Source of the DNA: Massilia sp. PDC64
Lineage (GTDB): Bacteria; Pseudomonadota; Gammaproteobacteria; Burkholderiales; Burkholderiaceae_D
DNA length: 64,000 nucleotides
Assembly (NCBI RefSeq): GCF_900101265.1
Contig: NZ_FMZS01000005.1
Span: 372,001 to 436,000 of the forward strand
Direction of reading: 5' to 3'
This document shows positions 41,890 through 59,383 of this stretch, one piece after another. The notes beneath the pieces were generated by a model. The model had not been told where the DNA came from and did not search any database. It worked only from the letters and a program-made list of their open reading frames with translations. The translations under genes were made by a program, and so were the position numbers. Every line of letters begins with the position of its first letter. The stretch's first letter is position 1.

Positions 41890-41939
41890 TTGACGGCCGA
41901 AATATCTGCAACTACCATAATCATAATTACGATTATGAT
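41890..41939 (+). promoter_or_regulatory. Promoter and AT-rich palindromic operator of the glycoside locus, unit 1
   Basis: TTGACG (41890-41895), 17 bases, TACCAT (41913-41918) form a good sigma-70 promoter. Right over the predicted start lies ATCATAAT-TACG-ATTATGAT (41920-41939), an inverted repeat with 8-base arms. Related sites stand at 46063-46080, 49212-49229 and 56685-56700, around a tetR gene at 48520, so I read it as a TetR operator. Confidence 0.75.
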
Positions 41940-41970
41940 TTATCCTCGACACCACCCAGAAGGGACTTGT

Positions 41971-43065
41971 ATGCGCTTTTCCGTCTTCCTCAACGCCCGC
42001 ACCATGACGCCGGACGCCGACCGCCAGCTGATCGTCGACCTGGAGCGGCACGCCCTGCTGGCGGGCGAGCTCGGCTTCAACGCCATCTTCCTGCCGGACC
42101 ACCACTTCAACGGCTACATGCCGGTCGCCAGCGACAGCTACATGTTCGCGTCCTACCTCGCGGCCAAGCTGCCGGATATGCACTTCGGCTTCTCCGTCAC
42201 GACCGTGCCGCTGCACCACCCGGTCCGCTTCGTCGAGCGCATCAACATCCTCGACCATCTCACGAAGGGCAAGCTGCTGGTGGGCGTGGGTTCCGGCACG
42301 ACGCCGGAAGAGATGATTGGCTTTGGGGTGAACTACAAGGACGCCGGCCGCATCGCCGAGGAAAACCTCGCGGCCGCGGAAGCGCTGTGGAACAAGCGCG
42401 TGGAAGACGACGCGATCGAACTGGATGGCTTCCACAAGGGCCGCGTGCTGCAGCGCATCGCCCCGAGCCCGTACGGCCAGAAGCACGCGCGCCTGATGCC
42501 GGTGGCGATGAAGGATGCGAGCATCGCGCGCGCCGCGGTGAATGGCTGGCCCGCGTTCATTCCCGCGTTCACGCCGCCGCAGATCGGCGGCCTGGAACCG
42601 CTCACGCACGTGAAAAAATACTTCGGCAAATACCACGAGCAGCTGCTGGCGGCCGGCCATGACGAGAAGACGGTCGCCGACGCGCTGTCGTGGACGACGC
42701 ACAGCTACCAGTGCGTCCACCTGGCCGAGACGGACGAGCAGGCGCACGAGGAAGTGATGGAGATCCTGACGTCGTACCAGGAAGCGATCGAGCGCGAAGC
42801 CGCGTTCAACGCGAAGGCCGAAGCCGACGAGGCGAACAGGAAGACCGACCGCACCGGCAGCGCGTTGACGGAAGAATGGATGGCCACGTGGTGCCTGTAC
42901 GGCAGCCCGGCCACCGTCATCGACAAGCTGCGCGCGTACCAGCAGGTCGGCATCGGCAACATCCTGTGCGGCACCGTCACCGGTCCGCTGACGGAAAAGC
43001 GCCTGGCCTACGCGGACCAGACCCTGCGCCTGCTGGCCCAACACGTCATCCCGGCATTCCAATGA
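41971..43065 (+). CDS. LLM-class flavin-dependent monooxygenase (luciferase-like)
   Basis: A 364-residue TIM-barrel flavoprotein of the bacterial luciferase type. MRFSVFLNARTMTPDADRQL, AGELGFNAIFLPDHHFNG, GFSVTTVPLHHPVRFVERINILDHLTKGKLLVGVGSG and the C-terminal YGSPATVIDKLRAYQQVGIGNILCG are typical. It uses FMNH2 and oxygen to oxidise an organic substrate. An FMN reductase gene lies two genes on and could supply FMNH2. ATG 41971 follows AAGGGAC. It is first in an operon with GH3 (overlapping by 4 bases), under the palindromic operator at 41920. Confidence 0.85.
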   Translation: MRFSVFLNARTMTPDADRQLIVDLERHALLAGELGFNAIFLPDHHFNGYMPVASDSYMFASYLAAKLPDMHFGFSVTTVPLHHPVRFVERINILDHLTKGKLLVGVGSGTTPEEMIGFGVNYKDAGRIAEENLAAAEALWNKRVEDDAIELDGFHKGRVLQRIAPSPYGQKHARLMPVAMKDASIARAAVNGWPAFIPAFTPPQIGGLEPLTHVKKYFGKYHEQLLAAGHDEKTVADALSWTTHSYQCVHLAETDEQAHEEVMEILTSYQEAIEREAAFNAKAEADEANRKTDRTGSALTEEWMATWCLYGSPATVIDKLRAYQQVGIGNILCGTVTGPLTEKRLAYADQTLRLLAQHVIPAFQ

Positions 43066-45446
43066 AAGATACGACCTTGACCATCGACGAGATGGCGCTG
43101 CTCACGGCGGGCGCGTCGATGTGGTCCACGGCGGCCATCCCGCACGCGGGCATCCCGTCGCTGGCGATGGCGGACGGCCCGATGGGCGTCGCCGGCCCGC
43201 GTGTGGACGAGCGCGACGTGTCGCTGCTGACGCCGGCCCCCGTCGCGCTGGGCGCCAGCTGGGACAGGGACCTCGTGCAGCGGGTGGGCCGCCTCGTCGG
43301 CGGCGAGGCGATCCGCCGCAACGTGGACCTGATGCTCGCGCCGAACCTGAACCTCGCCCGCAGCCCGCTGGCCGGGCGCGCGTTCGAATATTTTTCCGAA
43401 GACCCGCTGCTGTGCGGACGGCTCGGCGCCGCGTGGATCCAGGGCTGCCAGTCCGTCGGCACGGGCGCCGTGGCGAAACACCTCGTGTGCAACGACAGCG
43501 AGACGGCGCGCGATTCCATGAATGCCGTCGTCGACGAGCGCACCCTGCGCGAAGTCTACCTCGCGCCGTTCGAAATGGCGGCGCAAGCCGGCTGCGCGGG
43601 CATGCTCACCGCGTACAACAAGGTGAACGGCGCCTGGTGCGCGGAGGCCGGCAAGGTCGTGCGCGACGTCGCGAAGGGCGAGTGGAAGTTCGACGGCGTG
43701 TTCATGAGCGACTGGTTCGGCACGCATTCGACCGCGCCGTCGCTGAACGGTGGCCTCGACCTCGAGATGCCGGGGCCCGCGCGCTTCCTCGGTGCGAAGA
43801 GCGCGGGCGCGGTGGCGGAGGGGCAGGTCGCTGTCGAACGCCTGCGCGACGCGGCCGAACGCGTGGCACGCACGGCGCGCCGCTTCGGCAGGGGCAAGGG
43901 CACGCCGCTGCCGGCCGGGGACGCCGGCACGTTGCTGGTGGAGGCGGCCGCCGCCGGCTTCACGCTCGTAAAGAACGAGGATGCGATCCTGCCGCTGGAC
44001 CCCGCGCGCTACCCACGCATCGCCGTGCTGGGCCCGAACGCGAGCGCGCCGTGCTTCCAGGGCGGCACGTTCGCCAAGATCGCCGTGCGGCCGGACGCGC
44101 TGCTGCCGCTGGACGCGCTCCGTGCCCGCTTCGGCGCCGCCATCGTTGCGTACGAACCCGGTGTCGACCCGCAGCCGAAGCTGCCGCGCATGCCCGCGCG
44201 CCCGATGCGCGACGTGGACGGCTGCACGCGCGGCATGACGCTCGACTACTTCGACAACCCCGACTGCGCGGGCAGCCCGCTGCTGAGCGAGACGCGCGAC
44301 ACGAACTCGCTGACGTGGTTCCACGGCGTGCACGCGGCCGGCGCGCTGCAGCAGGCCGCGGCCACGCGGGCGAGCGGCGTCGTGACGGCCACCGCCGACG
44401 GTCCGCACCGGTTCTACATCGGCGGCACGGGCGCGCTGCGCCTCGTCGTCGACGGCGTGGAGGTGTTCCGCCGCGACGAACAACTGGCGCCCGGCGACGT
44501 GATGGGTCGGCTGAAGAGCGGCGACGCGGACAGCGTCACGGTCGACTTGCGCGCCGGCCAGCCAGTCGATGTCGTCGCGGAGCTGCGCTACACGCCCGCA
44601 CGCTGCCAGGGCCTGTGGTACGGCGTGCGCGGCCCGGACAGCAACGAGGCCATGCTGGCCCGCGCCGTCGACGCGGCGCGCGCGGCGGATGCCGTCGTGC
44701 TGGTCGTCGGCGAGACGTCGGACGCCAGCGTCGAGAGTAAGGACCGCGCCGACACCCGCCTGCCGGCCGAACAGGTCGACCTGATCGAGCGGGTGTGCGC
44801 GGCGAACCCGAACACCATCGTCGTCACGAACGTGGGACACGCGTTCGACACGTGCTGGGAAGCGCAGGCGAAGGCCGTGCTGCATTGCTGGTATCCGGGC
44901 GAGGAATTCGGCCGTGCATTGGCGCAAGTGCTGGCGGGCGACCGCGAGCCCGGCGGCCGCATGCCCGTGACCATCGCCCGCGACGACAGCGACTACCCGG
45001 CGCTGTCGCTGCAGCCGGATGCGAATGGCGACCTGCGCTACGACGAGGGCACGCGCGTCGGCTACCGCGGCCTGGCCGCGCGCGGCATCGCACCGCGCCA
45101 GGCGTTCGGCGCCGGCTTCGGCTACACGACGTTCGCATTGCACAACGCCGCGGCCGCAACGGACGGAGAAGATGGCTGGGTCGTGACGGTCGACGTGCGC
45201 AATACCGGCACCCGCGCCGGCGCCGAAGTCGTGCAGGTCTACCGCACCGTGCCCGAACTGACGCTCGTCGGCTTCGACAAGGTCCACGTCGAACCGGGCG
45301 ACACCCGCACGGTGCGCATCCCCATCGACCGCCGCCGGCTGCAGACGTGGCAGGGCGGCTGGACCGACCTGCCGGGCCCCGTCGATCTGCTCGTCGGCCG
45401 TTCCAGCGCCGACCTGCCGTTCGCCGTACAAGTCAACACCGATTAA
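43062..45446 (+). CDS. GH3 beta-glycosidase with PA14-like insert, cytoplasmic
   Basis: A 794-residue enzyme with no signal peptide. The N-terminal barrel has GRAFEYFSEDPLLCG, AVAKHLVCNDSE and FMSDWFGTH with the nucleophile Asp217. Residues of about 380-530 look like a PA14 insert (MTLDYFDNPDCAGSPLLSE ... PHRFYIGGTGALRLVVDG). The second domain has VVGETSDASVESKDRADTRLP with a likely acid/base Glu, and a fibronectin-III-like tail follows. It should cut beta-glucosides or similar small glycosides inside the cell. Its ATG overlaps the monooxygenase stop (43062-43065). Confidence 0.93.
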   Translation: MKDTTLTIDEMALLTAGASMWSTAAIPHAGIPSLAMADGPMGVAGPRVDERDVSLLTPAPVALGASWDRDLVQRVGRLVGGEAIRRNVDLMLAPNLNLARSPLAGRAFEYFSEDPLLCGRLGAAWIQGCQSVGTGAVAKHLVCNDSETARDSMNAVVDERTLREVYLAPFEMAAQAGCAGMLTAYNKVNGAWCAEAGKVVRDVAKGEWKFDGVFMSDWFGTHSTAPSLNGGLDLEMPGPARFLGAKSAGAVAEGQVAVERLRDAAERVARTARRFGRGKGTPLPAGDAGTLLVEAAAAGFTLVKNEDAILPLDPARYPRIAVLGPNASAPCFQGGTFAKIAVRPDALLPLDALRARFGAAIVAYEPGVDPQPKLPRMPARPMRDVDGCTRGMTLDYFDNPDCAGSPLLSETRDTNSLTWFHGVHAAGALQQAAATRASGVVTATADGPHRFYIGGTGALRLVVDGVEVFRRDEQLAPGDVMGRLKSGDADSVTVDLRAGQPVDVVAELRYTPARCQGLWYGVRGPDSNEAMLARAVDAARAADAVVLVVGETSDASVESKDRADTRLPAEQVDLIERVCAANPNTIVVTNVGHAFDTCWEAQAKAVLHCWYPGEEFGRALAQVLAGDREPGGRMPVTIARDDSDYPALSLQPDANGDLRYDEGTRVGYRGLAARGIAPRQAFGAGFGYTTFALHNAAAATDGEDGWVVTVDVRNTGTRAGAEVVQVYRTVPELTLVGFDKVHVEPGDTRTVRIPIDRRRLQTWQGGWTDLPGPVDLLVGRSSADLPFAVQVNTD

Positions 45447-45459
45447 ACAGGAGATCACC

Positions 45460-46080
45460 ATGAATGCCATCGATACAAATTTCGCCGACCGTCCCTTCAT
45501 CGTCGGCATCGGCGGCACGACCCGCCCCGGCTCCAGCACGGAGAGCGCGCTGCGCACGGCGCTGCAGTACGCGGAAGAACTGGGCGCGGAAACGCAGCTG
45601 TTCGGCGGCGAAGCCCTCAGCACGCTGGACGTGTTCTCGCCCGAAGTGCGCGAACGCAGCCCGGCGCAGCGCGCCATCGTCGACGCCGTGCGCCGCGCGG
45701 ACGCCGTCATCTTCGCGTCGCCGGGCTACCACGGCGGTGTCTCCGGCCTCGTCAAGAACGCCATCGACCTGCTGGAAGACCTGCGCGCGGACGAGCGCGT
45801 GTACCTGGACGGCATGCCGGTCGGCTGCATCGTCACGGCGGCCGGCTGGCAGGGCTGCAACACGACCCTGGGCGCGATGCGCTCGATCGTGCACGCGCTG
45901 CGCGGCTGGCCCACGCCGCTGGGCGTGACGCTCAATACTGCCGGCGTCAAGCTGTTCGACGCGCAGGGCCAGTGCCTGGACGCGCAAGTGGCGGCCAGCC
46001 TGAAGCTGCTGGCGGAGCAGGTCGTCAACCCGGCTGGCGTGTTTGCACGAGGGAATAAAAAATCAGAATTATTATTATAA
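45460..46080 (+). CDS. NAD(P)H-dependent FMN reductase
   Basis: A 206-residue flavodoxin-fold protein. GIGGTTRPGSSTESALR is the FMN phosphate loop, and SPGYHGGVSGLVKNAIDLLEDL is the second FMN motif. It would reduce FMN for the LLM monooxygenase at the start of this operon; the two-component pairing is inferred from the family and context. Its final codons and stop lie within the operator-like AT-rich site at 46063-46080. ATG 45460 follows ACAGGAGATCACC. Confidence 0.88.
   Translation: MNAIDTNFADRPFIVGIGGTTRPGSSTESALRTALQYAEELGAETQLFGGEALSTLDVFSPEVRERSPAQRAIVDAVRRADAVIFASPGYHGGVSGLVKNAIDLLEDLRADERVYLDGMPVGCIVTAAGWQGCNTTLGAMRSIVHALRGWPTPLGVTLNTAGVKLFDAQGQCLDAQVAASLKLLAEQVVNPAGVFARGNKKSELLL
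46063..46080 (+). promoter_or_regulatory. AT-rich operator-like site, unit 2
   Basis: TCAGAATTATTATTATAA matches the 49212-49229 site at 15 of 18 positions. It overlaps the end of the FMN reductase gene and precedes the Tat-signal subunit gene at 46130. It suggests an internal, separately controlled promoter, although the -10/-35 here is unclear. Confidence 0.55.
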
Positions 46081-46129
46081 AACCTGTGCTATCCTGACCA
46101 AAAAGAACGACACACGCGGAGACAGAAGC

Positions 46130-46756
46130 ATGAAGATCCATACGATAGGGACCGGGCCCGCGAGCCCGTCCCGCCGGGCGGCGCTGGGCGCGCTGCTGGC
46201 CGGCGTCGGCACGGCGGGCGCCTGGACCAGCGCCTCGGCCGCGGCGGCCCTGCAAGCCGCCGGCGCAGGCGCGGCACGGTCCACCGGTCTCACCAAACCT
46301 GAACTGAAGATCCTGACGGTGGCGGCCGACACCATCATCCCCGTCACCGACACGCCGGGCGCCGTCGCGGCGGGCGTACCGCACTTCATCGACGCGTTGG
46401 CGAAGCACTGGATGAACGCGGACGAGCTGGCGCAATTCCGCGCCGGTCTCGCGGACCTCGACAAGCGCGCGCAGCAGCGCTACCGGCACGGGTTCGCCGC
46501 TTGCTCGCCGGCGCAGGCCACTACGATCCTGCAAGACCTGCGCGCATCGAGCCCGTACGAAGGCCGCACGTTCGAACTGGCGGCCCGCATCGAAGATCCG
46601 AAGGCGCCGTTCTACCTGCGCCTGCGCGACCTCGTCGTCTACGGCTATTTCACGTCCGAGATCGGCAGCACGAAGGAGCTGCGCTACGTCGCGGTACCGG
46701 GGCGCTTCGACGGCGACGTCGACGTCAAGACGTGGCCGTACCAGAACGTCATCTGA
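46130..46756 (+). CDS. Gluconate 2-dehydrogenase subunit 3-like protein with Tat signal
   Basis: A 208-residue protein of the gluconate_2-dh3 family. SPSRRAALGALLAGVGTAG is a twin-arginine-type signal. ELKILTVAADTIIPVTDTPGAVAAGVPHFIDAL is the family core. In known dehydrogenases of this kind the small subunit carries the export signal for a partner GMC flavoprotein that lacks one, and the next gene is exactly such a protein (19-base gap). The pair should therefore act in the periplasm. ATG 46130 follows CGGAGACAGAAGC. Confidence 0.87.
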   Translation: MKIHTIGTGPASPSRRAALGALLAGVGTAGAWTSASAAAALQAAGAGAARSTGLTKPELKILTVAADTIIPVTDTPGAVAAGVPHFIDALAKHWMNADELAQFRAGLADLDKRAQQRYRHGFAACSPAQATTILQDLRASSPYEGRTFELAARIEDPKAPFYLRLRDLVVYGYFTSEIGSTKELRYVAVPGRFDGDVDVKTWPYQNVI

Positions 46757-46775
46757 ATCGCGCGAAAGGACAACC

Positions 46776-48470
46776 ATGAATCAAACGACCGAATTCGACG
46801 CGATCGTGATCGGCTCCGGCATCACCGGCGGCTGGGCCGCGAAGGAACTCACGGAGAAGGGCCTGAAGGTCCTGGTGCTGGAGCGGGGCAAGCCGCTCGA
46901 GCACCAGAAGGGCTATGTCAACGAATTCACGCCGCCGTGGCAGGCACCCGAGCGGGGCTTGCCGGACCGCGTGCTGGACGCGCGCGAATACGAAATCCAG
47001 AGCAAGATCGAGCGGGGCGCGTTCAGCTGGGCCAACCGCCAGTACTGGATCAACGACCGCCAGAACCCCTACGAACAGGTGAAACCGTTCCGCTGGCACC
47101 GCACCGACGTGCTGGGCGGCCGCTCGCTCACGTGGGGCCGCCAGTCGTACCGCTGGGGCTCGGACGACTTCCTGCAAAATAAACGCGACGGGCACGGCAA
47201 CGACTGGCCGATCCGCTACGCCGACCTGGAACCGTGGTACACGCACGTGGAAAAATTCATCGGCGTGAGCGGTACGCCGGAAGGACTGGCGAACTTCCCC
47301 GACGGGCACTACCTGCCGCCGTTCGAGATGACGGCGCTGGAAAAACACCTCAAGCGCACTGTCGAGGCAAAGTGGCAGGACCGCCGTGTGACGATCGGCC
47401 GCGTGGCCAACCTGACGGAAGCGCTGGACGGCCGCGGCCCATGCCAGCGGCGCAACATCTGCAACCGCGGCTGCTCGTTCGGCGCGTATTTCAGCTCGCT
47501 GAGCTCCACGTTGCCGGCCGCGCAGAAGACGGGCCTCCTCACGATCCGCACGGACAGCGTCGTGGAAGCGATCGACGTCGACCCGCAGACGAAGAAGGCC
47601 ACTGGCGTGCGCGTCATCGATGCGAAGTCGGGCGAGCGCCTGCGTTTCGGCGCGAAGGTGATCTTCCTGAACGCGTCGACGTACGGCACCCTGCAGATCC
47701 TGCTGCAGTCGAAGAGCGCGCTGCACCCGAACGGCATCGGCAACCACAGCGACGTGCTGGGGCGCTACCTCGTCGACCATGCGGGCGTGGGCGTGTTCGC
47801 GGAGATCCCCGGCTTCGAGGACCGCAACTACAGCGGCCGCCGTCCCACGGGCATCCTCGTGCCGCGCTTCCGCAACATCGGCGGCCAGGACGCGGACGCC
47901 GACTTCACGCGCGGCTACGGCTACCAGGGCGGTGCCATGCGCGACGACTGGACGAATACGGCCGCGCAGACGGACGGGTTCGGCGCCGAGACGAAGCACC
48001 AGATCGCGCGGCCCGGCAAGTGGATCGCGTTCCTCGGCGCGTTCTGCGAACAGCTGCCGCAGAAGGACAACCGCGTCACGCTGAACGAGAACAAGCGGGG
48101 CGGCTTCGGCCTGCCGCAACTGAGCTTCGACGTGGCGTACGGCGAGAACGAACGGCGCATGAAGCTCGACGCGGCCAAACAGGCGGAGCAGATGCTCGTC
48201 GCGGCCGGCGCGAAGCACGTCGTGACGATTCCCGTGCGGGCGATTCCCGGCGTCTCCATCCACGAGATGGGCGGCGCGCGCATGGGCCACGACCCGGCGG
48301 AATCCGTGCTGAACGCCCACAATCAGGTGCATGGCGTACCGAACCTGTTCGTCACGGACGGTGCCGCGATGGCATCGTCCGGCACGGTGAACCCGTCGCT
48401 GACGTACATGGCGCTGACGGCGCGCGCGGCCGACTACGCCGTCGCGCAGCTGAAGGCGGGCGCGCTGTGA
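46776..48470 (+). CDS. GMC oxidoreductase, probable glucoside 3-dehydrogenase-type catalytic subunit
   Basis: A 564-residue FAD protein. VIGSGITGGWAAKEL (about residues 11-25) binds FAD, and WHRTDVLGGRSLTWGRQSYRW follows. The active-site pair is His496 (SIHEMGGARMG) and Asn539 (SGTVNPSLTYMAL). Cys223, Cys229 and Cys233 in PCQRRNICNRGC could hold an iron-sulfur cluster, as in FAD-dependent sugar dehydrogenases of this group. It has no signal peptide and likely rides out with the Tat-signal subunit. I infer 3-oxidation of glycosides because of the TIM-barrel proteins nearby; gluconate- or sorbitol-type oxidation is the alternative. No cytochrome c subunit gene is seen in the window. Confidence 0.87.
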   Translation: MNQTTEFDAIVIGSGITGGWAAKELTEKGLKVLVLERGKPLEHQKGYVNEFTPPWQAPERGLPDRVLDAREYEIQSKIERGAFSWANRQYWINDRQNPYEQVKPFRWHRTDVLGGRSLTWGRQSYRWGSDDFLQNKRDGHGNDWPIRYADLEPWYTHVEKFIGVSGTPEGLANFPDGHYLPPFEMTALEKHLKRTVEAKWQDRRVTIGRVANLTEALDGRGPCQRRNICNRGCSFGAYFSSLSSTLPAAQKTGLLTIRTDSVVEAIDVDPQTKKATGVRVIDAKSGERLRFGAKVIFLNASTYGTLQILLQSKSALHPNGIGNHSDVLGRYLVDHAGVGVFAEIPGFEDRNYSGRRPTGILVPRFRNIGGQDADADFTRGYGYQGGAMRDDWTNTAAQTDGFGAETKHQIARPGKWIAFLGAFCEQLPQKDNRVTLNENKRGGFGLPQLSFDVAYGENERRMKLDAAKQAEQMLVAAGAKHVVTIPVRAIPGVSIHEMGGARMGHDPAESVLNAHNQVHGVPNLFVTDGAAMASSGTVNPSLTYMALTARAADYAVAQLKAGAL

Positions 48471-48519
48471 TTTCGGCTAGAATCCGCCTTTACCATCATT
48501 GATAACGACGACGACATCC

Positions 48520-49167
48520 ATGGAGAGCGCAACCGCCCACGCCCGGGCGCCCAAGCAGGGCCGCAGCCGGCAATCGTTCGACCGCATCATCGAGGCGACC
48601 ATCGACCTGCTGCGCGAACGGTCTTACGACCAGATCACGCTGGCCGAGATCTGCCAGCTGGCCGGCGTTTCCACTGGCGCGCTTTACGGCCGCGTGACCG
48701 GCAAGGACGAGCTGCTGCGCGCCGTGCAGGTGCGCTTCTTCGAGCGCCTGGACCAGGCGTTCACGGATGAAGCGCAACGCATTGCGGCGCAGGCGCACGG
48801 CCTTGCCCAGGTCGTGCCGGCCGTCGTGGCGAGCCTCGGCAACCTGCTGAAGGAAAACGCCAGCGTGCTGCGCTCGTTCATGCTGCGCGGCGCCGTCGAC
48901 GAGGTCATCGGCGCGGCCGGCAAGAAATCCGCGTACGAGAACCACGCCAAGTTCAGCCGCCTCGTGGAAGCGTGTAGTGCCGAGATCCGGCATCCGAATC
49001 CGGCGCGCGCGATCGAGGCGAGCATGCTGCTGATCTATGCGACCCAGGCCCGCTTCCTCGGCCTGGACAGCTTCGGCGGCAAGGGAGAAGCGCGCGGCTG
49101 GGAGGAATTGCTGGAAGACCTGAGCGACATGATGCTCGCGTACCTGCTGTTCGTGCCGGAACGGTGA
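48520..49167 (+). CDS. TetR/AcrR-family transcriptional regulator
   Basis: A 215-residue repressor-type protein. SRQSFDRIIEATIDLLRERSYDQITLAEICQLAGVSTGALYGRVTGKDELLRAV is the TetR DNA-binding domain; the rest is an all-helical ligand domain. Position between the GMC genes and the isomerase genes, and four similar AT-rich operator sites around it, suggest that it controls the whole glycoside locus. ATG 48520 lacks a clear Shine-Dalgarno; a TTG at 48499 in frame is an alternative start. ATCATTGAT just upstream (48495-48503) is a weak hint of autoregulation. A clear terminator follows. Confidence 0.88.
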   Translation: MESATAHARAPKQGRSRQSFDRIIEATIDLLRERSYDQITLAEICQLAGVSTGALYGRVTGKDELLRAVQVRFFERLDQAFTDEAQRIAAQAHGLAQVVPAVVASLGNLLKENASVLRSFMLRGAVDEVIGAAGKKSAYENHAKFSRLVEACSAEIRHPNPARAIEASMLLIYATQARFLGLDSFGGKGEARGWEELLEDLSDMMLAYLLFVPER

Positions 49168-49172
49168 ACGAA

Positions 49173-49197
49173 GGCGGCTTCTTGCCGCCATCTTTTT
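49173..49197 (+). terminator. Rho-independent terminator after tetR
   Basis: GGCGGC (49173-49178), loop TTCTT, GCCGCC (49184-49189), then ATCTTTTT. It starts 5 bases past the tetR stop and separates that gene from the isomerase operon. Confidence 0.85.
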
Positions 49198-49203
49198 GAA
49201 TTT

Positions 49204-49229
49204 TAATATAACCAGAATTACGATTATAA
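49204..49229 (+). promoter_or_regulatory. -10 box and AT-rich operator of the isomerase/MFS operon, unit 3
   Basis: CCAGAATTACGATTATAA (49212-49229) shares AATTACGATTAT with the palindrome at 41920. It lies directly after a TAATAT -10 candidate (49204-49209; -35 TTGCCG at 49182-49187, 16-base spacer). The operator would cover the start of transcription. The ATG of the first gene is only 3 bases beyond the site. Confidence 0.65.
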
Positions 49230-49231
49230 AC

Positions 49232-50176
49232 ATGACGACCAACAAACTCCGCTGGGCCTACATGGACCACTGGCGCATCGACACGCCGCAGGGCCAGCTG
49301 TCGCAATACACGTCCGTGCAGCGCTTCGACGATTTCCTGAAGCAGGTCGCGGCCCTCGGCTTTGAGGCCATCGAGACGTTCGACTTCCACCTCGGCCCGC
49401 TGCGCGAACTGTTCGGCAGCCTGGAAAACGCGCGCGCCTTCATGCAGTCGCGCGGCATCGACAGGGTCCTCAGCCTGTTTCACGCCGTCATGTACGACGA
49501 GCGCCAGAGCGCGCCGCACGTGCGCTCCACGCACGACCACATCGTCAACTACGCGGAATACATCATGCGGTCCAGCCAGGGCCTGGGCGTGGAAAACTTC
49601 ATCGTGATGCCGGCGGGCCTGTACTACGACGTGGAGCCGGTCACGGACGACAAGATCCGCGCCTGCGCCGAGCTGTGGAACCGCGTGGGCGAGATGACGC
49701 AGAAGTATGGCGTCAAGACGTGCTGCCACCACGAGTTCTTTTGCGGGATCCGCACGGCGGAGCAGCTGCGCAAATTCTACGAGTGGACCGACCCGCGCTA
49801 CGTGTTCTTCTACTGCGACACGGCGCAGCACGTGATCGCCGGCGTCGACCCGGTCGACCTGTATTTGAAACTGGCGGACCGCTGCGGCGGCTTCCACATG
49901 AAGGACACGTTGCACGTCGACCTGACGGGCGACTACCGCCGCAAGCCGGACGCCGAAGTGATGGCGCCGACGACGCCGCGCTGGTTCCACGAGATGGGCG
50001 TGCCGGGCGGCCTCGTCGACTTCCCCGCCATGATGGCCGCGATGAAGGACTGCGGCTACGAGGGCTGGGTCGGCGTCGAGCACGACAAGGCCGACGTCGG
50101 CGGCGGCAACTACCCGGAAAGCACCGCGTTGTCCGCCTGGTACATCCAGCACGTCCTGAAAAAAATCTACGCCTGA
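49232..50176 (+). CDS. Sugar phosphate isomerase/epimerase-family TIM-barrel protein (1)
   Basis: A 314-residue AP-endonuclease-2-type TIM barrel. FEAIETFDFHLGP, MPAGLYYDV, CCHHEFFCGI (Glu/His), FFYCDTAQHVIAG (Asp and His), GGFHMKDTLHVD (His) and GWVGVEHDKA (Glu) give the E-D-H-E metal set of the family. Such proteins act as epimerases, isomerases or lyases on keto-sugars; here a role on 3-keto-glycosides is inferred from the GMC and deglycosidase genes. I use ATG 49232 (MTTNKLRWAYMDHWR); an earlier ATG at 49196 would lie within the promoter. No Shine-Dalgarno is visible. Confidence 0.85.
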   Translation: MTTNKLRWAYMDHWRIDTPQGQLSQYTSVQRFDDFLKQVAALGFEAIETFDFHLGPLRELFGSLENARAFMQSRGIDRVLSLFHAVMYDERQSAPHVRSTHDHIVNYAEYIMRSSQGLGVENFIVMPAGLYYDVEPVTDDKIRACAELWNRVGEMTQKYGVKTCCHHEFFCGIRTAEQLRKFYEWTDPRYVFFYCDTAQHVIAGVDPVDLYLKLADRCGGFHMKDTLHVDLTGDYRRKPDAEVMAPTTPRWFHEMGVPGGLVDFPAMMAAMKDCGYEGWVGVEHDKADVGGGNYPESTALSAWYIQHVLKKIYA

Positions 50177-50190
50177 ATCGAACGACCACC

Positions 50191-51159
50191 ATGCATAAAC
50201 AGATCAAATGGGGCTATGCCCTGAACCAGTGGAAGGCCGGCTTCACGAGCTTCGCGCGCCTGGAAGAAATCGAACGCGCCTTCAAGGTGACGGCCGCCTG
50301 CGGCTTCGACGCCGTGGAACTGAACGCGGGCAGCGGCCGCTGGGACCCGATCGGGCGCCCGGAGAACATCGCCATCAACTTCGGGTCCGCCGACCACTTC
50401 CGCCTGAAGCTGAAGGACTGGGGCATCCATCGCGTGGCCAGTACCTTCTTCGATCCGACCGTGATGAGTTTCGAGGAACTGCACTTCGGCTTGAATAGCA
50501 CCCAGCCGGCCGACCACGCGCGCATCCTCGCGCAGGCCAAGATCCATGCCGAATTCCTGGCCGAGCTGAAAGGCGAGTTCCTCGTCGTGCGGCCGTTCCC
50601 GTCGTGGTGGAAGGAGGGCGGCCTCACGCCCGAACGGATCGCTGCGGCGGCCGATTGCTGGAACGCCGTCGGCGCGATGACGGCCGCGCTGGGCCTGAAG
50701 ACCGTGCTGCACGTGGACGCGCTGTCCGCGCTGCGCACGGCCGAGGAACTGGAGCGGTTGCTGTCCCTGTGCGACGCGGACAACGTGGGCCTGTGCTTCG
50801 ACACGGCCGAGCTGACGATTGCGGGCCACGACGTCGTCGCGCTGTACCGCCGCTTCCACGAACGCGTGTGGCACTTCCAGTTCAAGGACGCGCTGGCGAC
50901 CGACACGCTGGACGAGTACAAGCTGCAGAACGCGGAGCGCGCGCTGATCGCGGCCGGCGGCGAGCGGGGCATCCAGCGCTGGTTCGGCGAGATGGGCACG
51001 GGCCTCGTCGACTTCCCGGCACTGCTGGCCGCCATGCGCGAGCTGGGCTACGCCGGCTGGATCATCGTCGAAAGCGACAAGGGGCCGGCGCCGATCGCGA
51101 CCGGCATGATGCTCAACAGCTGGTACAGGCAGCACGTACTGGACCGCATCGCCGCCTGA
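50191..51159 (+). CDS. Sugar phosphate isomerase/epimerase-family TIM-barrel protein (2)
   Basis: A 322-residue TIM barrel related to the previous one. CGFDAVELNAGSGRWDP, LKTVLHVDALSALR, VGLCFDTAELTIAGHDV (Asp, His), RVWHFQFKDAL (His) and GWIIVESDKG (Glu) supply metal-site candidates. It follows 14 bases after the first and was probably produced by an old duplication, though the two have diverged strongly. Inferred role: a second step on keto-sugars, such as epimerisation or hydration. The substrate is unknown. Confidence 0.85.
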   Translation: MHKQIKWGYALNQWKAGFTSFARLEEIERAFKVTAACGFDAVELNAGSGRWDPIGRPENIAINFGSADHFRLKLKDWGIHRVASTFFDPTVMSFEELHFGLNSTQPADHARILAQAKIHAEFLAELKGEFLVVRPFPSWWKEGGLTPERIAAAADCWNAVGAMTAALGLKTVLHVDALSALRTAEELERLLSLCDADNVGLCFDTAELTIAGHDVVALYRRFHERVWHFQFKDALATDTLDEYKLQNAERALIAAGGERGIQRWFGEMGTGLVDFPALLAAMRELGYAGWIIVESDKGPAPIATGMMLNSWYRQHVLDRIAA

Positions 51160-51178
51160 CACACGCGAAAGGATCGCC

Positions 51179-52387
51179 ATGCATCCCACCTCCATGTCGA
51201 CACCGGCAGTGACGCCGCTCGCCGCGACGCCACGCCGCCACGGCGGCCTCGCGCAGGGCATCGCGCTGATGGCCATCGTGAACATGCCGTCGCTGGCACT
51301 GTCCGCGCTCGTGCCCGGCCTGCCGCAGTTGTTCCAGCAGTTTTCGAACGTGCCGCATTTCCAGCTGCTCGTCCCGATGATCATCACGGTGCCGTCGCTG
51401 TGCGTGGCGCTGACGTCCGGCTTCACGGGCATGCTGGCGGACCGCTTCGGCCGCCGCAACCTGCTGCTCGCCGCGCTGTTCGCGTTCGCGCTGCTGGGCC
51501 TCGCGCCGCTGCTGTTCGACAGCCTGCTGCTGATCGTCGCCAGCCGCGTGATAGTGGGCGTGGCGGAAGCGGCGATCCTCACGGTGGGCAATGCGCTGAT
51601 GGGCGACTACTTCGAAGGCGCGCAGCGCGAGAAGTGGCTCGGCTACCAGAACATGCTGTCGCCGCTGATCGGCTCGTCGATCATCCTGGCGGGCGGCCTG
51701 CTGGCGGGCGTGCACTGGCGCTATCCGTTCCTGCTGTACCTCATCGGCTTCGCCGTGTTCGCGCTCGCGTGGTTCGTCTGCTGGGAGCCGGAGCGCGACC
51801 GCAGCGCTGCCGGCACCGAGGCCGTGGCAGGCTTCCCGTGGCGTTCGACCCTGTTCGTGTGCGGCGTCACCGTGCTGTTCTCGATGGTGTTCTTCGTGCA
51901 GGCCGTGCAGCACGGGCGCATCTTCGGCGACATGGGCGTCGCGTCGCCGGAGCGCATCAGCGTGCTCGTGACCATCGCGAGCCTCGGCACGATCCTGGGC
52001 GGCTATGTGTTCAAGCGCCTCGGCGGCGTGTCCGTCACCTTGCGCCTGGCGACCAGCATGGCGCTGTACGGCACCTGCTACGTCGGCGTGGCGTGGGCGC
52101 CGAATGCCACCGTCGGCCTGCCGCTGGACGCGCTGGGCCAGGTGGGCGGTGGCCTGCTGCTGCCGGCGCTGATCGCGTGGGCGCTCACGCATTACTGTTT
52201 CGAACACCGCGGCCGCGGCATGGGCCTGTGGGGCGGCTCGTTCTTCCTCGGGCAGTTCCTCAGCGCGCCGCTGCTCACGCTGATCCAAAGCGCGGCCGGC
52301 ACGTTCCTCGCCAGCGTCGCCGCCATCGGCATCGCCTGCCTGTGCGCGTCCGTCGCGCTGGCGGCCTACCATTTTACGAAAGATTGA
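51179..52387 (+). CDS. MFS transporter (glycoside locus, copy 1)
   Basis: A 402-residue protein with 12 predicted helices. The loop after helix 2 is GMLADRFGRRNLL, the MFS signature, and FEHRGRGMGLWGGSFFLGQFLSAPL marks the second half. It is similar throughout to the MFS protein at 56764-57972 (shared ADRFGRR, DYFE, WRYPFL/WQYPFL, FEHRGRGMG). It likely imports the (oxidised) glycoside for the isomerase-like enzymes; direction is inference. ATG 51179 follows GAAAGGATCGCC. Confidence 0.9.
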   Translation: MHPTSMSTPAVTPLAATPRRHGGLAQGIALMAIVNMPSLALSALVPGLPQLFQQFSNVPHFQLLVPMIITVPSLCVALTSGFTGMLADRFGRRNLLLAALFAFALLGLAPLLFDSLLLIVASRVIVGVAEAAILTVGNALMGDYFEGAQREKWLGYQNMLSPLIGSSIILAGGLLAGVHWRYPFLLYLIGFAVFALAWFVCWEPERDRSAAGTEAVAGFPWRSTLFVCGVTVLFSMVFFVQAVQHGRIFGDMGVASPERISVLVTIASLGTILGGYVFKRLGGVSVTLRLATSMALYGTCYVGVAWAPNATVGLPLDALGQVGGGLLLPALIAWALTHYCFEHRGRGMGLWGGSFFLGQFLSAPLLTLIQSAAGTFLASVAAIGIACLCASVALAAYHFTKD

Positions 52388-52388
52388 T

Positions 52389-53159
52389 ATGACATTTGCA
52401 GCCTGTATCGAATGGATGTTCACGAAGGGGAACGACGACCTCGCGTCGCGCGTCCGCGCCGCCCACGCGGCCGGCGTGCCGGGCGTGGAGTTCCACCTGT
52501 GGCGCGAAAAGGACCTGGACGCGATCGAACGCGCATTGAATGACACCGGCGTGCGCCTCGTGAGCTTTTGCGTGGAACCTCGCTGCAGCCTCGTCGACCC
52601 GGCGGATCACGACAAGGTGCTCGCCGCCGTCGCCGATGCAATCCCCGTCGCGCAGCGTTTCAAGGATGCCGGCATGGTCGTGGCGTCCGGTTTCACGCGT
52701 CCCGGCGTGCCGGAGCAGGAACAGGTCGACGCCGCCGTGTCCGTGTTGCGCCGCGCGGCGCAGATGGCGCACGAAGCGGGCACCGTGCTGTGGCTGGAAC
52801 CCGTCTACATGATCCTGAACGGCCAGCGCATGTTCGTTGACACGATCGGCCGCGGCCTGGACATCGTCGCGGCCGTGGACAGCCCGGGCCTGCGGCTGCT
52901 GGCGGACGTCTATCACTCGGCACAGACGAACGAGGACCTGGCCGGCGCCATCGGCGACCGCATGCGTTACGTCGGGCACGTGCAGGTGGCCGACACGCCG
53001 GGCCGCCACGAGCCGGGCACGGGCGCGATCGCGTGGCCGGCCGTGATGGACGTGCTGCGCGCCAAGGGCTACGACGGCCCCATCGGCCTGGAATACTTCC
53101 CCAGCGTGGACGATGCGGAATCGCTGGCCCTGACGCGCCGCGCGCTGGGCGTGGCGTAA
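52389..53159 (+). CDS. Hydroxypyruvate isomerase-like TIM-barrel protein
   Basis: A 256-residue protein that follows the transporter with a 1-base gap. FAACIEWMFTKGNDDLASR, GVPGVEFHLWREKDL, LWLEPVYMILNG, LLADVYHSAQTNEDL, HVQVADTPGRHEPGTG and GLEYFPS match the Hyi family, including the Glu-Asp-His-Glu metal site and the family word VADTPGRHEPGTG. Hyi-like enzymes interconvert hydroxypyruvate and tartronate semialdehyde or act on other keto-sugars; here the substrate is open. Confidence 0.88.
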   Translation: MTFAACIEWMFTKGNDDLASRVRAAHAAGVPGVEFHLWREKDLDAIERALNDTGVRLVSFCVEPRCSLVDPADHDKVLAAVADAIPVAQRFKDAGMVVASGFTRPGVPEQEQVDAAVSVLRRAAQMAHEAGTVLWLEPVYMILNGQRMFVDTIGRGLDIVAAVDSPGLRLLADVYHSAQTNEDLAGAIGDRMRYVGHVQVADTPGRHEPGTGAIAWPAVMDVLRAKGYDGPIGLEYFPSVDDAESLALTRRALGVA

Positions 53160-53178
53160 CGACGGCGGATGGTGCACG

Positions 53179-54090
53179 ATGCGATTCAATAAACTGGACC
53201 TGAACCTGCTGGTCGTGCTGAACGCGCTCCTCACCGAGTGCAACATCAGCCGCGCGGCGGAAAAGATCTACCTGAGCCAGTCGGCGACGAGCAGCGCGCT
53301 CGCGCGCCTGCGCGACTACTTCAACGACGAGCTGCTCGTCAGCGCCGGCCGCCAGCTCGTGCTGACGCCGCGCGCGAAGGAACTGGTCGAGCCGGTGCGC
53401 GAAGTCCTCATGCGCATCGACAGCACCATCGCCACGCAGCCCCAGTTCGACCCGGCCACGGAGACGCGCACGTTCACGATCCTCGTGTCCGACTACACGA
53501 TGGCCGTGCTCGTGCCGCCGCTGCTGGAAGCGCTGTACCGCCAGGCGCCGGGCGTGCGCGTGAGCCTGCGCCACCAGTACGACCGCCAGCCGGCCGACGT
53601 GCTTGAGCAGGGCGACGCCGACTTCCTCGTGATCCCGTCGCAATACCTCGCGAAGGAACATCCGTCCGCCGTGCTGTTCGAGGAAGACTACCTGTGCGTG
53701 ACGTGGGAAGGCCACAGCCGCATCCAGGACAGGCTCACGTTCGACGACTACCTGTCGTGCGGCCACGTGATCCCGACGTTTTCCAGTCCCAATCCGCTGC
53801 CGACGCTGGACGGCTGGTTCATCGAGAGCTACGACGTCAAGCGCCGCGTGGAAGTCACGGCGCCGACGATGACGGGGTTGCCGTCGCTCGTCGTCGGCAC
53901 TGACCGCATCGCCACCGTGCACCGCCGCATCGCGCTGCGCGCGCAGGAATCGCTGCCGATCAAGGTGTGGGAACCGCCGCCGCGCATCCCGCGCCTCGTG
54001 CAGTCGCTGCAATGGCACCGCCACCGCAACAACGACCCGGCCATCCGCTGGCTGCGCGACCTGTTCGTCGACGTCGCCCGCGGCGTCTAA
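53179..54090 (+). CDS. LysR-family regulator, NodD/NahR-like
   Basis: A 303-residue regulator. The N-terminus MRFNKLDLNLLVVLNALLTE, with SRAAEKIYLSQSATSSALARLRDYFNDELLV, closely follows the pattern of NodD/NahR/LinR proteins, whose inducers are flavonoids or small aromatics. A substrate-binding domain follows. It lies 19 bases after the Hyi-like gene and 19 bases before an MFS exporter gene. An aromatic or flavonoid inducer, for example the aglycone released by this locus, is a reasonable inference. Confidence 0.88.
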   Translation: MRFNKLDLNLLVVLNALLTECNISRAAEKIYLSQSATSSALARLRDYFNDELLVSAGRQLVLTPRAKELVEPVREVLMRIDSTIATQPQFDPATETRTFTILVSDYTMAVLVPPLLEALYRQAPGVRVSLRHQYDRQPADVLEQGDADFLVIPSQYLAKEHPSAVLFEEDYLCVTWEGHSRIQDRLTFDDYLSCGHVIPTFSSPNPLPTLDGWFIESYDVKRRVEVTAPTMTGLPSLVVGTDRIATVHRRIALRAQESLPIKVWEPPPRIPRLVQSLQWHRHRNNDPAIRWLRDLFVDVARGV

Positions 54091-54109
54091 TCCTTTTCAG
54101 AGTCTCACC

Positions 54110-55546: not shown

Positions 55547-55664
55547 TGTAAATCAATATCGTGTTGCAACCACGCCCAGGGGACGTCTTTATGATGACCG
55601 CATACCCGCTGCCGAGCTCGCTTGAGACCGGCCGGCGGCAGGGTCGTCAATATGGAAAGGAACC

Positions 55665-56582
55665 ATGGATACTGCACGCGATCGCAACACCCTCGGACTG
55701 GTCGAAGCCGAGGAACTCTGGAACATGACCACCGTGGACCGGGAGGGATACATCTGCCGGGGCTGCGCCCGCCAGGTCTTTCCCGCGTCCTACCTCAAGG
55801 ACGTCAACAAGAAGCGTCCGTACTTCAAGCTGGGGCCGGGCGCGGTGCATCTCGACGGCTGCGACGTCGACGGCGCGGAACTCGTGCTCAAGCGGGCGCG
55901 CAAGGAGGCCGTCGGCAACCCGGACGAGGGCTATCCGCTGCCGTTCCCGAACCGCCTCGTGCTGGCCGACGAGCGCATCGTCGAGCCGCGCGACGACGAA
56001 CCCGCAGGCATCGGCGGCCGGGCACGCACGCAGGGGCGGCGTGAAGGCGACGGCACGACGCCGCGCCGGCACCACGGGCACACGGTGACGACCATCCGCA
56101 CCATTTGCCGGACATTCATGGACCTGCCCTACGACCGGCCGACCATGCCGCTGCACATACCCGGCGTGGAGGGGACCACGTATGCCAGGGTGTTCAGGTA
56201 TGTGATCGGCAAGCCCCAGGCGCTGGGCGGCACCCGGCTGTTCTACGCGCCGATCCGCTGGAAGGCCGAGCCGGTCGTCACGGACGAGTATTGCCTGCTG
56301 ACGTTGTACGCGGGGGAGTGGGACGAGGCGATCCGCGATTTTCCCGATCCGTACCGGGTGCGTGTCCATTGGGCGAACTGGAGCAAGTCGCGGCGCGACA
56401 GCTTGATCGAGGACTACGAGACGACCCGGCAGGAGGCCCGCGAACAGGCGCGCAAGGACAAGGCCATCAAGGGATGGCTGTTCTTCGTCGGCAGGCTGGA
56501 GGCCGCCAACCCCAATGTATTCGCCGTCGACAATCACAGGCTGATCTGCAGTCTCTCCGGCGCCATCGACTGGCCGAAGTAA
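55665..56582 (+). CDS. Protein of unknown function with CoiA-like N-terminal zinc-ribbon pattern
   Basis: A 305-residue soluble protein. Near residue 30, YICRGCARQVFPASYL with HLDGC at about residue 62 gives C-x2-C ... H-x3-C, as in the zinc-ribbon-like N-terminus of CoiA-type proteins; the rest is unrecognised. A basic, low-complexity link (GRREGDGTTPRRHHGHT) separates it from a C-terminal half ending GWLFFVGRLEAANPNVFAVD. Codon use differs from neighbours, with repeated AGG for arginine. It interrupts the glycoside locus and may have been inserted by transfer. ATG 55665 follows GGAAAGGAACC. Confidence 0.65.
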   Translation: MDTARDRNTLGLVEAEELWNMTTVDREGYICRGCARQVFPASYLKDVNKKRPYFKLGPGAVHLDGCDVDGAELVLKRARKEAVGNPDEGYPLPFPNRLVLADERIVEPRDDEPAGIGGRARTQGRREGDGTTPRRHHGHTVTTIRTICRTFMDLPYDRPTMPLHIPGVEGTTYARVFRYVIGKPQALGGTRLFYAPIRWKAEPVVTDEYCLLTLYAGEWDEAIRDFPDPYRVRVHWANWSKSRRDSLIEDYETTRQEAREQARKDKAIKGWLFFVGRLEAANPNVFAVDNHRLICSLSGAIDWPK

Positions 56583-56603
56583 GCGGCTCCCCGTGCGCAG
56601 GCG

Positions 56604-56624
56604 GCTATCCACCGGGTGGATAGC
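56604..56624. promoter_or_regulatory. Palindromic element shared with the 61.7-kb promoter
   Basis: A perfect inverted repeat with 10-base arms (GCTATCCACC / GGTGGATAGC) around a single G, about 50 bases upstream of the -35 of the MFS operon. A degenerate copy, TATCCACCGCATCGATAGC, stands at 61716-61734. After both, ATCCAAA and, further on, TTGGG-AAA-GAC-GAA are conserved. Position upstream of the -35 suggests an activator site. Confidence 0.7.
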
Positions 56625-56663
56625 TGCTATCCAAACAATCGCCCGGCTCTCCGAATTTTTCGC

Positions 56664-56700
56664 TTGGGGAAATAGACAGAAGTCGATATCATAATTCTGG
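56664..56700 (+). promoter_or_regulatory. Promoter of the C-glycoside deglycosidase operon with AT-rich operator, unit 4
   Basis: TTGGGG (56664-56669), 17 bases, TATCAT (56687-56692). The minus strand from 56700 reads CCAGAATTATGATATC, sharing CCAGAATTA-GAT with the site at 49212. The operator covers the -10, as expected for a TetR repressor. Confidence 0.65.
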
Positions 56701-56763
56701 TTCTATTTCCTGCACAAGACAGGATGCGGTAACAATCCGCAGCCAACGACAAGGAGACACGCG

Positions 56764-59001: not shown

Positions 59002-59011
59002 GGAGCGCGGC

Positions 59012-59383
59012 ATGTACGACAAACACATCATCTATCCCGATTCGCTGCGCAACGACGGCGACGGCTGGCGCGTGGGCGTGCGCCTCCCTTACTACCGCGG
59101 CCAGGTGCTGTCCGCCGTGGAAGACATCGCGCTGACCGTCGACGGCGAGAAGGTGCCGCGTGAGGACGTGCGCTTCACCGTGCGCGGCAAGACGTGGACC
59201 CTGGACGAGCTGGAGACGACGTACGACGAGCGCTGGGAATTCGGCGAAGTGGCGGAGGTCTCCGTGCCCGGAGGCAGCCTCGCGCCCGGCAAGCACACCG
59301 TCACGGCCGCCGTGCAGCTGCGCATCTCGTACCTGCCCTGGAGCCCGGTGACGTCCTGCACGACCGAGCTGGCTGTCGCATAA
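59012..59383 (+). CDS. C-glycoside deglycosidase beta-subunit-like protein (DUF6379)
   Basis: A 123-residue beta-rich protein. GVRLPYYRGQVLSAVEDIAL, VPREDVRFTVRGKTWTLDEL, ERWEFGEVAEVSVPGG and QLRISYLPWSPV follow the pattern known from DgpB/CarB, the small subunit that caps the active site of the C-glycoside-cleaving lyase. ATG 59012 has AAGGAG 6-7 bases upstream. Having this domain right after an SPI-type gene is the strongest sign that the locus handles C-glycosides or 3-keto-glycosides. Confidence 0.85.
   Translation: MYDKHIIYPDSLRNDGDGWRVGVRLPYYRGQVLSAVEDIALTVDGEKVPREDVRFTVRGKTWTLDELETTYDERWEFGEVAEVSVPGGSLAPGKHTVTAAVQLRISYLPWSPVTSCTTELAVA

What the first reader, a model, noticed from the sequence alone, without database searches (positions are those of the whole stretch)
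41920..56700. Four related AT-rich operators define a TetR regulon across the glycoside locus
ATCATAAT-TACG-ATTATGAT (41920-41939), TCAGAATTATTATTATAA (46063-46080), CCAGAATTACGATTATAA (49212-49229) and minus-strand CCAGAATTATGATATC (56700-56685) share one core in DNA that is otherwise strongly GC-rich. Three of the four sit on the -10 or start of a good promoter. The only TetR gene in the window lies in the middle. So one repressor may hold four units, including the distant deglycosidase operon, in one switch.
Basis: seen in the sequence. Interest (0 to 1): 0.65.

Follow-up and report, generated by a model that had tools for sequence, protein, structure and literature searches.

The report
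Four-operator regulon for plant-glycoside breakdown
A soil bacterium related to Massilia carries four copies of one short mirror-image DNA switch in front of four neighbouring groups of sugar-conjugate (glycoside) breakdown genes, and comparison with relatives says that one TetR-type repressor probably controls them all, an ordinary kind of circuit with one interesting double-controlled promoter.

Summary
In the whole 7.5-Mb genome S1-S3 are the only matches within 3 mismatches, and S1-S4 are 4 of the 5 places matching the inner 14-mer within 1 mismatch.

The conserved operator is ATAAYCAKAATTMTGRTTAT, centred on AA|TT. An unseeded motif search on upstream regions of relatives finds it, and its four best positions in the window are the four sites. 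In the genus, 8 of 62 genomes carry the TetR gene; all 8 carry the motif (slightly wider pattern), against 1 of the other 54. Promoters beside the LysR-type gene, 19-24 kb from tetR in two relatives, lack it.

So a TetR regulon of four units is well supported, though binding is inferred. The link to the C-glycoside deglycosidase operon (S4) is the weakest and varies between relatives. That promoter also carries a separate conserved LysR-type box, and S4 overlies its -10 hexamer. Likely logic there: LysR-type activation plus TetR repression. New member of a known kind.

The parts
41917..41936 (.). Operator S1, ATAATCATAATTACGATTAT; begins on the last two bases of the -10 and covers the probable start of the LLM-GH3-FMN reductase unit
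41890..41918 (+). Promoter TTGACG-17-TACCAT for the LLM unit; TTGAC-N17 (N18 in L040)-TAnnAT abutting the operator in 13 of 13 LLM promoters
41971..43065 (+). Luciferase-like (LLM) flavin monooxygenase
   Evidence: PF00296, (ORF 41890-43065 scanned)
43062..45446 (+). Glycoside hydrolase family 3
   Evidence: PF00933, PF01915, (ORF 42690-45446 scanned); start
45460..46080 (+). NAD(P)H-dependent FMN reductase
   Evidence: PF03358
46059..46078 (.). Operator S2, AAAATCAGAATTATTATTAT; lies on the last codons of the FMN reductase gene and on the probable -35 region of the next unit
46090..46095 (+). Probable -10 TATCCT of the G2D3-GMC-TetR unit (TATNCT downstream of the operator in 9 of 10 loci)
46130..46756 (+). 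Gluconate 2-dehydrogenase subunit 3-like protein (G2D3)
   Evidence: PF13618, (ORF 46043-46756 scanned)
46776..48470 (+). GMC oxidoreductase, nearest solved relative fructose dehydrogenase large subunit; probable glycoside dehydrogenase (inference)
   Evidence: PF05199
48499..49167 (+). TetR-family regulator, the inferred repressor; last gene of the S2 unit
   Evidence: PF00440; fold
49173..49199 (+). Intrinsic-terminator-like hairpin and T-rich tail after tetR
49208..49227 (.). Operator S3, ATAACCAGAATTACGATTAT; ends 4 bases before the ATG of ISO1
49232..50176 (+). ISO1, AP_endonuc_2 / IolE-like TIM barrel
   Evidence: PF01261; (below cut-off); ORF 49196-50176 scanned
50191..51159 (+). ISO2, IolE-like TIM barrel
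51179..52387 (+). MFS transporter 1
52389..53159 (+). ISO3, AP_endonuc_2
53179..54090 (+). LysR-type regulator, inferred partner of the second box
   Evidence: PF00126, PF03466
54110..55546 (+). MFS transporter 2
56604..56633 (+). LysR-type box GCTATCCACCGGGTGGATAGC plus half-site CTATCCA, upstream of S4
56687..56692 (+). -10 TATCAT of the deglycosidase operon, inside S4
56685..56704 (.). Operator S4, GATATCATAATTCTGGTTCT; exact inner 14-mer, weak left arm
56764..57972 (+). MFS transporter 3, first gene of the deglycosidase operon
58009..59001 (+). C-glycoside deglycosidase alpha-like TIM barrel
   Evidence: PF01261; (8qvc E 1.7e-125, named only as a TIM-barrel protein; 9m3b 'DgpC1' E 1.3e-38)
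58988..59383 (+). C-glycoside deglycosidase beta subunit; reading frame, start codon not determined (ORF scanned was 58937-59383)
   Evidence: PF19906
59393..60463 (+). ISO5, AP_endonuc_2
60460..61605 (+). Gfo/Idh/MocA oxidoreductase

Best explanation
S1-S4 are operators of the cluster's own TetR-family repressor (48499-49167). Shown by sequence: a 20-bp near-palindrome centred on AATT lies over promoter elements of four units, is nearly unique to this locus in the genome, and is conserved at the same genes in relatives. Inferred: a TetR dimer binds each site and blocks RNA polymerase at (1) LLM monooxygenase-GH3-FMN reductase, (2) G2D3-GMC-TetR (autoregulation), (3) ISO1-ISO2-MFS1-ISO3 and the genes behind them, and (4) MFS3-CGDA-CGDB-ISO5-Gfo. 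An inducer, probably the glycoside, its 3-keto form or the aglycone, releases it. At unit 4 the operator lies over the -10 of a promoter that also carries a LysR-type box, so that operon probably needs the LysR-type activator as well as release of TetR.
For: Genome-wide near-uniqueness of the sites. A matrix and an unseeded motif search from distant relatives both put the four sites first to fourth in the window; on 28 regions the unseeded search scored 300.0 against 37.3-62.3 in 20 simulated sets. TetR gene and motif co-occur: 8 of 8 carriers and 1 of 54 non-carriers in the genus, reversed-pattern control 0 of 62 (Fisher p 2.7e-9, not corrected for relatedness). In 13 of 13 LLM promoters the operator abuts the same TTGAC-N17/18-TAnnAT promoter. 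In L005, L036 and L037 the unit is LLM-GH3-FMN reductase-TetR-MFS3 with two operators and no other regulator gene inside it. LysR-side promoters of L047 and L038 have no operator. Operators lie directly upstream of tetR in L007 and L009. A second LLM-FMN reductase locus of G334 with a GH3-like gene, about 2.3 Mb from tetR, has three sites (29.7-37.8). The helix region GVSTG-LYGRV is kept in 12 of 14 aligned rows and the model folds as a TetR regulator.
Against: No binding or expression data. S4 has a poor left arm (score 28.3; one of 5,000 local simulations reached it), and in L006, L008 and L044 the orthologous promoter has no operator, with L043 intermediate at 19.0. The G334 locus L040, used above for action at a distance, has a 66% LysR relative about 2.5-4 kb from two of its sites, just outside the stretch taken, so it does not separate the two regulators. 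The LysR-side stretches without operator are only 19-24 kb from tetR, on the same contig. In the family draw 26 of 294 genomes match the wider pattern within 2 mismatches, though only 2 had the TetR gene at E 1e-20 (at most 10 candidates scored per genome); 54 of 294 match the reversed control (my count of the listing), and the only 1-mismatch matches are in the 2 carriers. Some non-carrier matches score high (L058 34.7, L059 35.4, G300's L045 27.2). TetR and sites lie in one cluster, so co-occurrence partly reflects linkage. L008's ISO1 site and L039's tetR site are weak (22.4, 17.3; simulated maximum 17.7).
Confidence: 0.84

Rival explanations
1. The sites belong to the LysR-type regulator of the same cluster (53179-54090).
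For: LysR relatives are found in 13 of 14 genomes searched at E 1e-50; the miss, G300, has no TetR gene. The second G334 locus (L040) has operators, a 66% LysR relative nearby and no TetR match in the stretch taken.
Against: G263 has operators but its best LysR relative is only 47% identical. The stretches around the 68% LysR genes of two genomes (L047, L038), 19-24 kb from tetR, lack the operator (best 1.4 and 11.6) and carry a different element of LysR-type shape (42.1 and 36.6; L047 is one of its training loci). Operators overlie promoters, as for a repressor.
Confidence: 0.06
2. S1-S3 are TetR operators, but S4 is a remnant or coincidence around a conserved -10 (TATCAT) and the deglycosidase operon is controlled by LysR alone.
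For: S4 has 4 mismatches over 20 bases. The TATCAT and the LysR-type box persist in L006, L008, L044 and L047, where the operator is absent.
Against: S4's inner 14-mer is the only exact one in the genome. Operators at this promoter in L036, L005, L037, L039 and L009 score 27.5-35.5. In L005, L036 and L037 this is the promoter directly behind tetR.
Confidence: 0.2
3. The AT-rich similarity is chance or a by-product of AT-rich -10 regions in a GC-rich genome.
For: The sites overlap promoter elements, which are AT-rich; AT-rich matches do occur in other genomes.
Against: Local simulations with the base-step frequencies of each 140-bp region, site included, gave 0, 0, 0 and 1 of 5,000 at or above the observed score. 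Genome-wide near-uniqueness. Conservation at matched genes.
Confidence: 0.01

Closest known systems
TetR-family local regulators with several operators for a catabolic cluster, e.g. KstR and BkaR of mycobacteria (KstR recalled; BkaR: start of abstract of PMC3920632 in the listing)
   Same: One TetR-type repressor, neighbouring catabolic genes; palindromic operators over promoters and autoregulation are the usual pattern (recalled)
   Different: Different gene content; similarity to known TetR models at E 0.001 is below every curated cut-off (11 of 11 listed). Operator sequences were not compared
C-glycoside deglycosidase clusters (dfg, dgp, car, PsG3Ox) of gut and soil bacteria (PMC8563793 and PMC10646112, passages seen)
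   Same: CGD alpha and beta genes side by side; oxidoreductases of the GMC and Gfo/Idh/MocA kinds that C3-oxidise glycosides there (abstracts in the listing)
   Different: Here in Oxalobacteraceae, beside an LLM monooxygenase, GH3, FMN reductase and IolE-like enzymes; the passages found with regulator terms in those two papers describe no regulator for the clusters
EthR-EthA (TetR repressor of a flavin monooxygenase; recalled)
   Same: A TetR-fold repressor of a flavin monooxygenase; EthR chains are among the best Foldseek hits
   Different: 13-16% identity in the EthR rows listed; EthA is a different class of monooxygenase (recalled)

Membership tests
TetR-family repressor | TetR_N HTH domain over the curated cut-off | tested here: met
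   39.5 bits against 24; 42 bits, one of 34 in the genome
TetR-family repressor | All-helical TetR fold with ligand-binding domain | tested here: met
   AlphaFold2 mean pLDDT 85.8, ten helices; the 50 Foldseek rows shown have TMt 0.52-0.79 and are nearly all named TetR-family or known TetR regulators
TetR-family repressor | Palindromic operator overlapping promoters of adjacent genes | tested here: met
   that this protein owns the palindrome is inferred
TetR-family repressor | Binding of the operator by the protein and release by a ligand | not testable with these tools
   needs EMSA, footprint or deletion
Named TetR regulators in NCBIfam (ScbR, BetI, AcrR and others) | Score over the curated cut-off | tested here: not met
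   best ScbR 45.4 bits against 150
LysR-type target promoter (56604-56633) | Dyad with T-N11-A upstream of the -35, in promoters linked to a lysR gene | tested here: inconclusive
   shape and company fit; the T-N11-A rule is recalled and binding by LysR is untested
C-glycoside deglycosidase operon | CGD alpha and beta subunits adjacent | tested here: met
   beta PF19906; alpha by similarity to 8qvc (E 1.7e-125) and 9m3b DgpC1 (E 1.3e-38); activity untested

The most novel reading that the evidence does not exclude
A two-input gate for plant C-glycoside use: the deglycosidase operon is activated by a LysR-type protein at a conserved box and is held in the TetR regulon only in some lineages, through an operator built onto its -10 hexamer. 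One inducer then opens the oxidation, hydrolysis and monooxygenase arms while the C-C cleavage arm needs two signals; Duganella-like relatives without S4 show the other state.
Probability: 0.4. Interest if true: 0.5.

Novelty: new member of a known kind. Interest (0 to 1): 0.4.

Why it matters
It gives a concrete, testable regulon and operator for a glycoside-degrading cluster with C-glycoside deglycosidase genes; in the few papers on such clusters searched here by term, no regulator was seen. It also ties a luciferase-like monooxygenase, a GH3 enzyme and IolE-like enzymes to the same pathway by shared control, which helps to assign their function, and offers a candidate natural inducible system for a plant-glycoside signal.

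Tried and rejected

A fifth operator at 61730-61749 (score 14.0) was rejected: it is below the simulated maximum of 17.7 and overlaps a LysR-type-like element (61714-61743).

The one other genome place with the 14-mer at 1 mismatch (C13:349652) scores only 8.8 over 20 bases, and no cluster gene matched in the 11-kb stretch taken.

Motif matches in non-carrier genomes (L058, L059, L060, L045) and outlying matches in carriers (L041, L042) have no cluster genes beside them, apart from one weak LysR match in L060. L058 and L059 score high (34.7, 35.4) and remain unexplained. Only these places of the genus, family and handle searches were looked at.

A class search (369 genomes, at most 8 candidates scored per genome) found the TetR profile at E 1e-30 only in the window's own genome; the family draw found 2 of 294 (at most 10 scored). 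Both draws are samples.

Limits of the motif tests. Training sites were picked with a pattern partly drawn from the window; of the places within 4 mismatches outside the close group, L005:5799, L040:1159, L040:1496, L041, L042 and L045 were not used. The 40 upstream regions were chosen by me; one search used 28 of them, all the LLM, ISO1, MFS3 and G2D3-side TonB promoters among them (the LysR, TetR, G2D3 and L047 regions were dropped).

Paper searches: (C-glycoside, deglycosidase, 3-keto, TetR: 26 papers, 20 listed; several 'tetr' counts are chemical words; TetR, operator, 3-ketoglucoside, regulon: 1,036 papers, 15 listed, none with 3-ketoglucoside; 0; 8 listed, none on this; operator letters: 0; 18 papers, 10 listed; 9 listed): enzyme or general papers. 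PMC10628242, PMC12724307, PMC8563793 and PMC10646112 were searched for terms; only the passages returned were seen, and PMC12724307 returned none. No regulator of such a cluster was seen. Papers outside this open library are not covered.
Full report
Setting. The window is positions 372001-436000 of contig C25 of a 7,513,523-base genome. The closest named loci holding the same TetR gene are Massilia sp. Root133 (97% identity) and Telluria antibiotica (96%), so the strain is Massilia-like (inference).

Gene order: TonB receptor and arylsulfotransferase-like gene on the minus strand; then on the plus strand LLM monooxygenase, GH3, FMN reductase; gluconate-2-dehydrogenase-subunit-3-like protein (G2D3), GMC oxidoreductase, TetR; ISO1, ISO2, MFS1, ISO3, LysR, MFS2, a gene without Pfam match; MFS3, CGD alpha, CGD beta, ISO5, Gfo/Idh/MocA. 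ISO and MFS numbers are mine. The deglycosidase operon is identified by PF19906 and by its alpha subunit's matches to 8qvc (1.7e-125, named only as a TIM-barrel protein) and 9m3b DgpC1 (1.3e-38).

Observation. The four strings are present. Relatives show the true register to be ATAAYCAKAATTMTGRTTAT, a palindrome centred on AA|TT. S1 41917-41936 has 1 mismatch, S2 46059-46078 has 2, S3 49208-49227 has 1 and S4 56685-56704 has 4. In the whole genome S1-S3 are the only places within 3 mismatches and the reversed pattern gives none. With the inner 14-mer at up to 1 mismatch there are five places: S4 (exact), S1, S2, S3 and one on C13.

Independent motif tests. A matrix built from 22 sites of ten loci outside the close group (L005-L010, L036, L037, L039, L040; window, L003, L004 and L035 left out) ranks S1, S3, S2, S4 first to fourth of the window (42.3, 41.5, 40.2, 28.3); 60 simulated windows reached 17.8 at most. 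Those training sites had been picked with a pattern partly drawn from the window, so I repeated the test without a seed: expectation maximisation with a palindrome constraint on 40 upstream regions of distant relatives. It returned ATAATCAGAATTCTGATTAT and the same four sites on top (36.4, 36.4, 34.6, 26.6; order S2, S1, S3, S4); 100 simulated windows reached 17.7. On 28 regions it scored 300.0 against 37.3-62.3 in 20 simulated sets.

Where the operator lies in relatives. LLM: 9 of 9 distant promoters (33.1-37.8) and 4 of 4 near ones (window, L003, L004, L035). ISO1: 5 of 5 distant (22.4-37.3, L008 weakest) and 4 of 4 near. TonB receptor gene in front of G2D3-GMC: 5 of 5 (25.9-32.6). G2D3 itself: 4 of 4 near and L039 (29.7), none at L007 (-10.3), where that TonB gene heads the unit. 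MFS3: 4 of 4 near; of 9 distant, five at 27.5-35.5, one at 19.0 (L043) and three without a usable site (L006, L008, L044). Directly upstream of tetR, in the three regions scored: L007 33.2, L009 26.9, L039 17.3. In the window tetR is the last gene behind S2, so autoregulation is expected. L040, about 2.3 Mb from tetR in G334, has an LLM-FMN reductase pair and a GH3-like gene (27%) with sites of 37.8, 33.1 and 29.7. That suggests action at a distance, but a 66% LysR relative lies just outside that stretch.

Which protein. In the 62 genus genomes, 8 have the TetR gene at E 1e-20 and 9 have the motif (pattern ATAAYYAKAATTMTRRTTAT, up to 2 mismatches): those 8 plus G300, whose match is AT-rich, has 4 mismatches to the stricter consensus and still scores 27.2. 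Reversed control: 0 of 62. Fisher p is 2.7e-9, uncorrected for relatedness, and linkage contributes. In the family draw 26 of 294 genomes match within 2 mismatches, fewer than the reversed control (54 of 294 by my count of the listing), and the only 1-mismatch matches are in the two carriers. The best separation from LysR comes from rearranged clusters. L005, L036 and L037 have LLM-GH3-FMN reductase-TetR-MFS3 with two operators each; the nearest LysR there is a 43% relative 1.5-3.5 kb beyond MFS3. In the genomes of L005 and L037 the 68% LysR lies 19-24 kb from tetR; the stretches around it (L047 with MFS2, an MFS3-like gene and the deglycosidase genes; L038 with MFS2) have no operator (best 1.4 and 11.6) but carry the LysR-type box (42.1 and 36.6). 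G263 has operators but only a 47% LysR relative.

Promoter anatomy. In 13 of 13 LLM promoters TTGAC-N17-TAnnAT (N18 in L040) abuts the operator, which starts on the last two bases of the -10. S2 covers the -35 region of a promoter whose TATNCT is found in 9 of 10 loci (not L039). S3 ends four bases before the ISO1 ATG. S4 contains the -10 TATCAT; this hexamer stays in L006, L008, L044 and L047, where the operator is absent. All four positions fit a repressor that blocks polymerase. By consensus alone the scan supports only the S1 promoter on the coding strand.

Second element. Upstream of MFS3, 56604-56633 is GCTATCCACCGGGTGGATAGC-TG-CTATCCA. A matrix from ten distant loci scores it 30.5, above the next window place (18.9) and the simulated maximum of 19.1 (40 windows). 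By eye the element is in all 14 MFS3 upstream regions printed, ten of which are the training loci; the 14 include those without the TetR operator. Its dyad shape and company make the cluster's LysR the likely owner (inference). The best model for unit 4 is therefore activation by LysR plus repression by TetR.

The protein. Only one TetR_N match lies in the window. The helix region GVSTG-LYGRV is kept in 12 of 14 aligned rows, the exceptions being L010 (one change) and the 28% paralogue L038. The model folds as a TetR regulator, and no NCBIfam model listed reaches its cut-off. The ligand is unknown; the gene content suggests a plant glycoside, its 3-keto form or an aromatic aglycone (inference).

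Verdict. The finding is right in substance, with the register corrected and unit 4 qualified. It is a well-supported but ordinary kind of circuit; the interest lies in the pathway it ties together and in the double-controlled deglycosidase promoter.

Noticed in passing
56604-56633: LysR-type box upstream of the deglycosidase operon, also present in relatives that lack the TetR operator; similar elements score 21-28 elsewhere in L005, L036, L037, L039, L009 and L043, in several cases near TonB receptor genes.
   Followed up: yes
61714-61743: Weaker copy of the LysR-type element (18.9, simulated maximum 19.1) upstream of a second TonB receptor gene whose ATG is probably at 61846.
   Followed up: partly
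49196-49240: ISO1 ATG at 49232 has no visible Shine-Dalgarno sequence and the operator ends 4 bases before it; with TTGAAT-17-TACGAT the transcript could be leaderless in the Massilia-like group, whereas L006-L010 have purine-rich stretches before their ATG (by eye).
   Followed up: partly
46059-46080: Operator S2 is embedded in the last codons and stop of the FMN reductase gene, so coding and regulatory sequence overlap here.
   Followed up: no
L009:4949-5587 and L009:10001-10678: Two TetR paralogues (61% and 71-74% to the window's) in one locus of Pseudoduganella umbonata, with operators at the end of the first and before the second.
   Followed up: partly
L040:1159-7791: Second LLM-FMN reductase locus with a GH3-like gene in Duganella sp. 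CF402 (G334), with three sites, no TetR match in the stretch taken and a 66% LysR relative just outside it.
   Followed up: partly
37833-41808: Divergent TonB receptor and arylsulfotransferase-like unit shares the intergenic region with S1 in the window, L003, L005 and L036; whether TetR also controls it is open.
   Followed up: no
L058:5830 and L059:5246: High-scoring palindromes of the same kind in family genomes without this TetR gene (at E 1e-20) and with no cluster genes nearby; another regulator or chance.
   Followed up: partly
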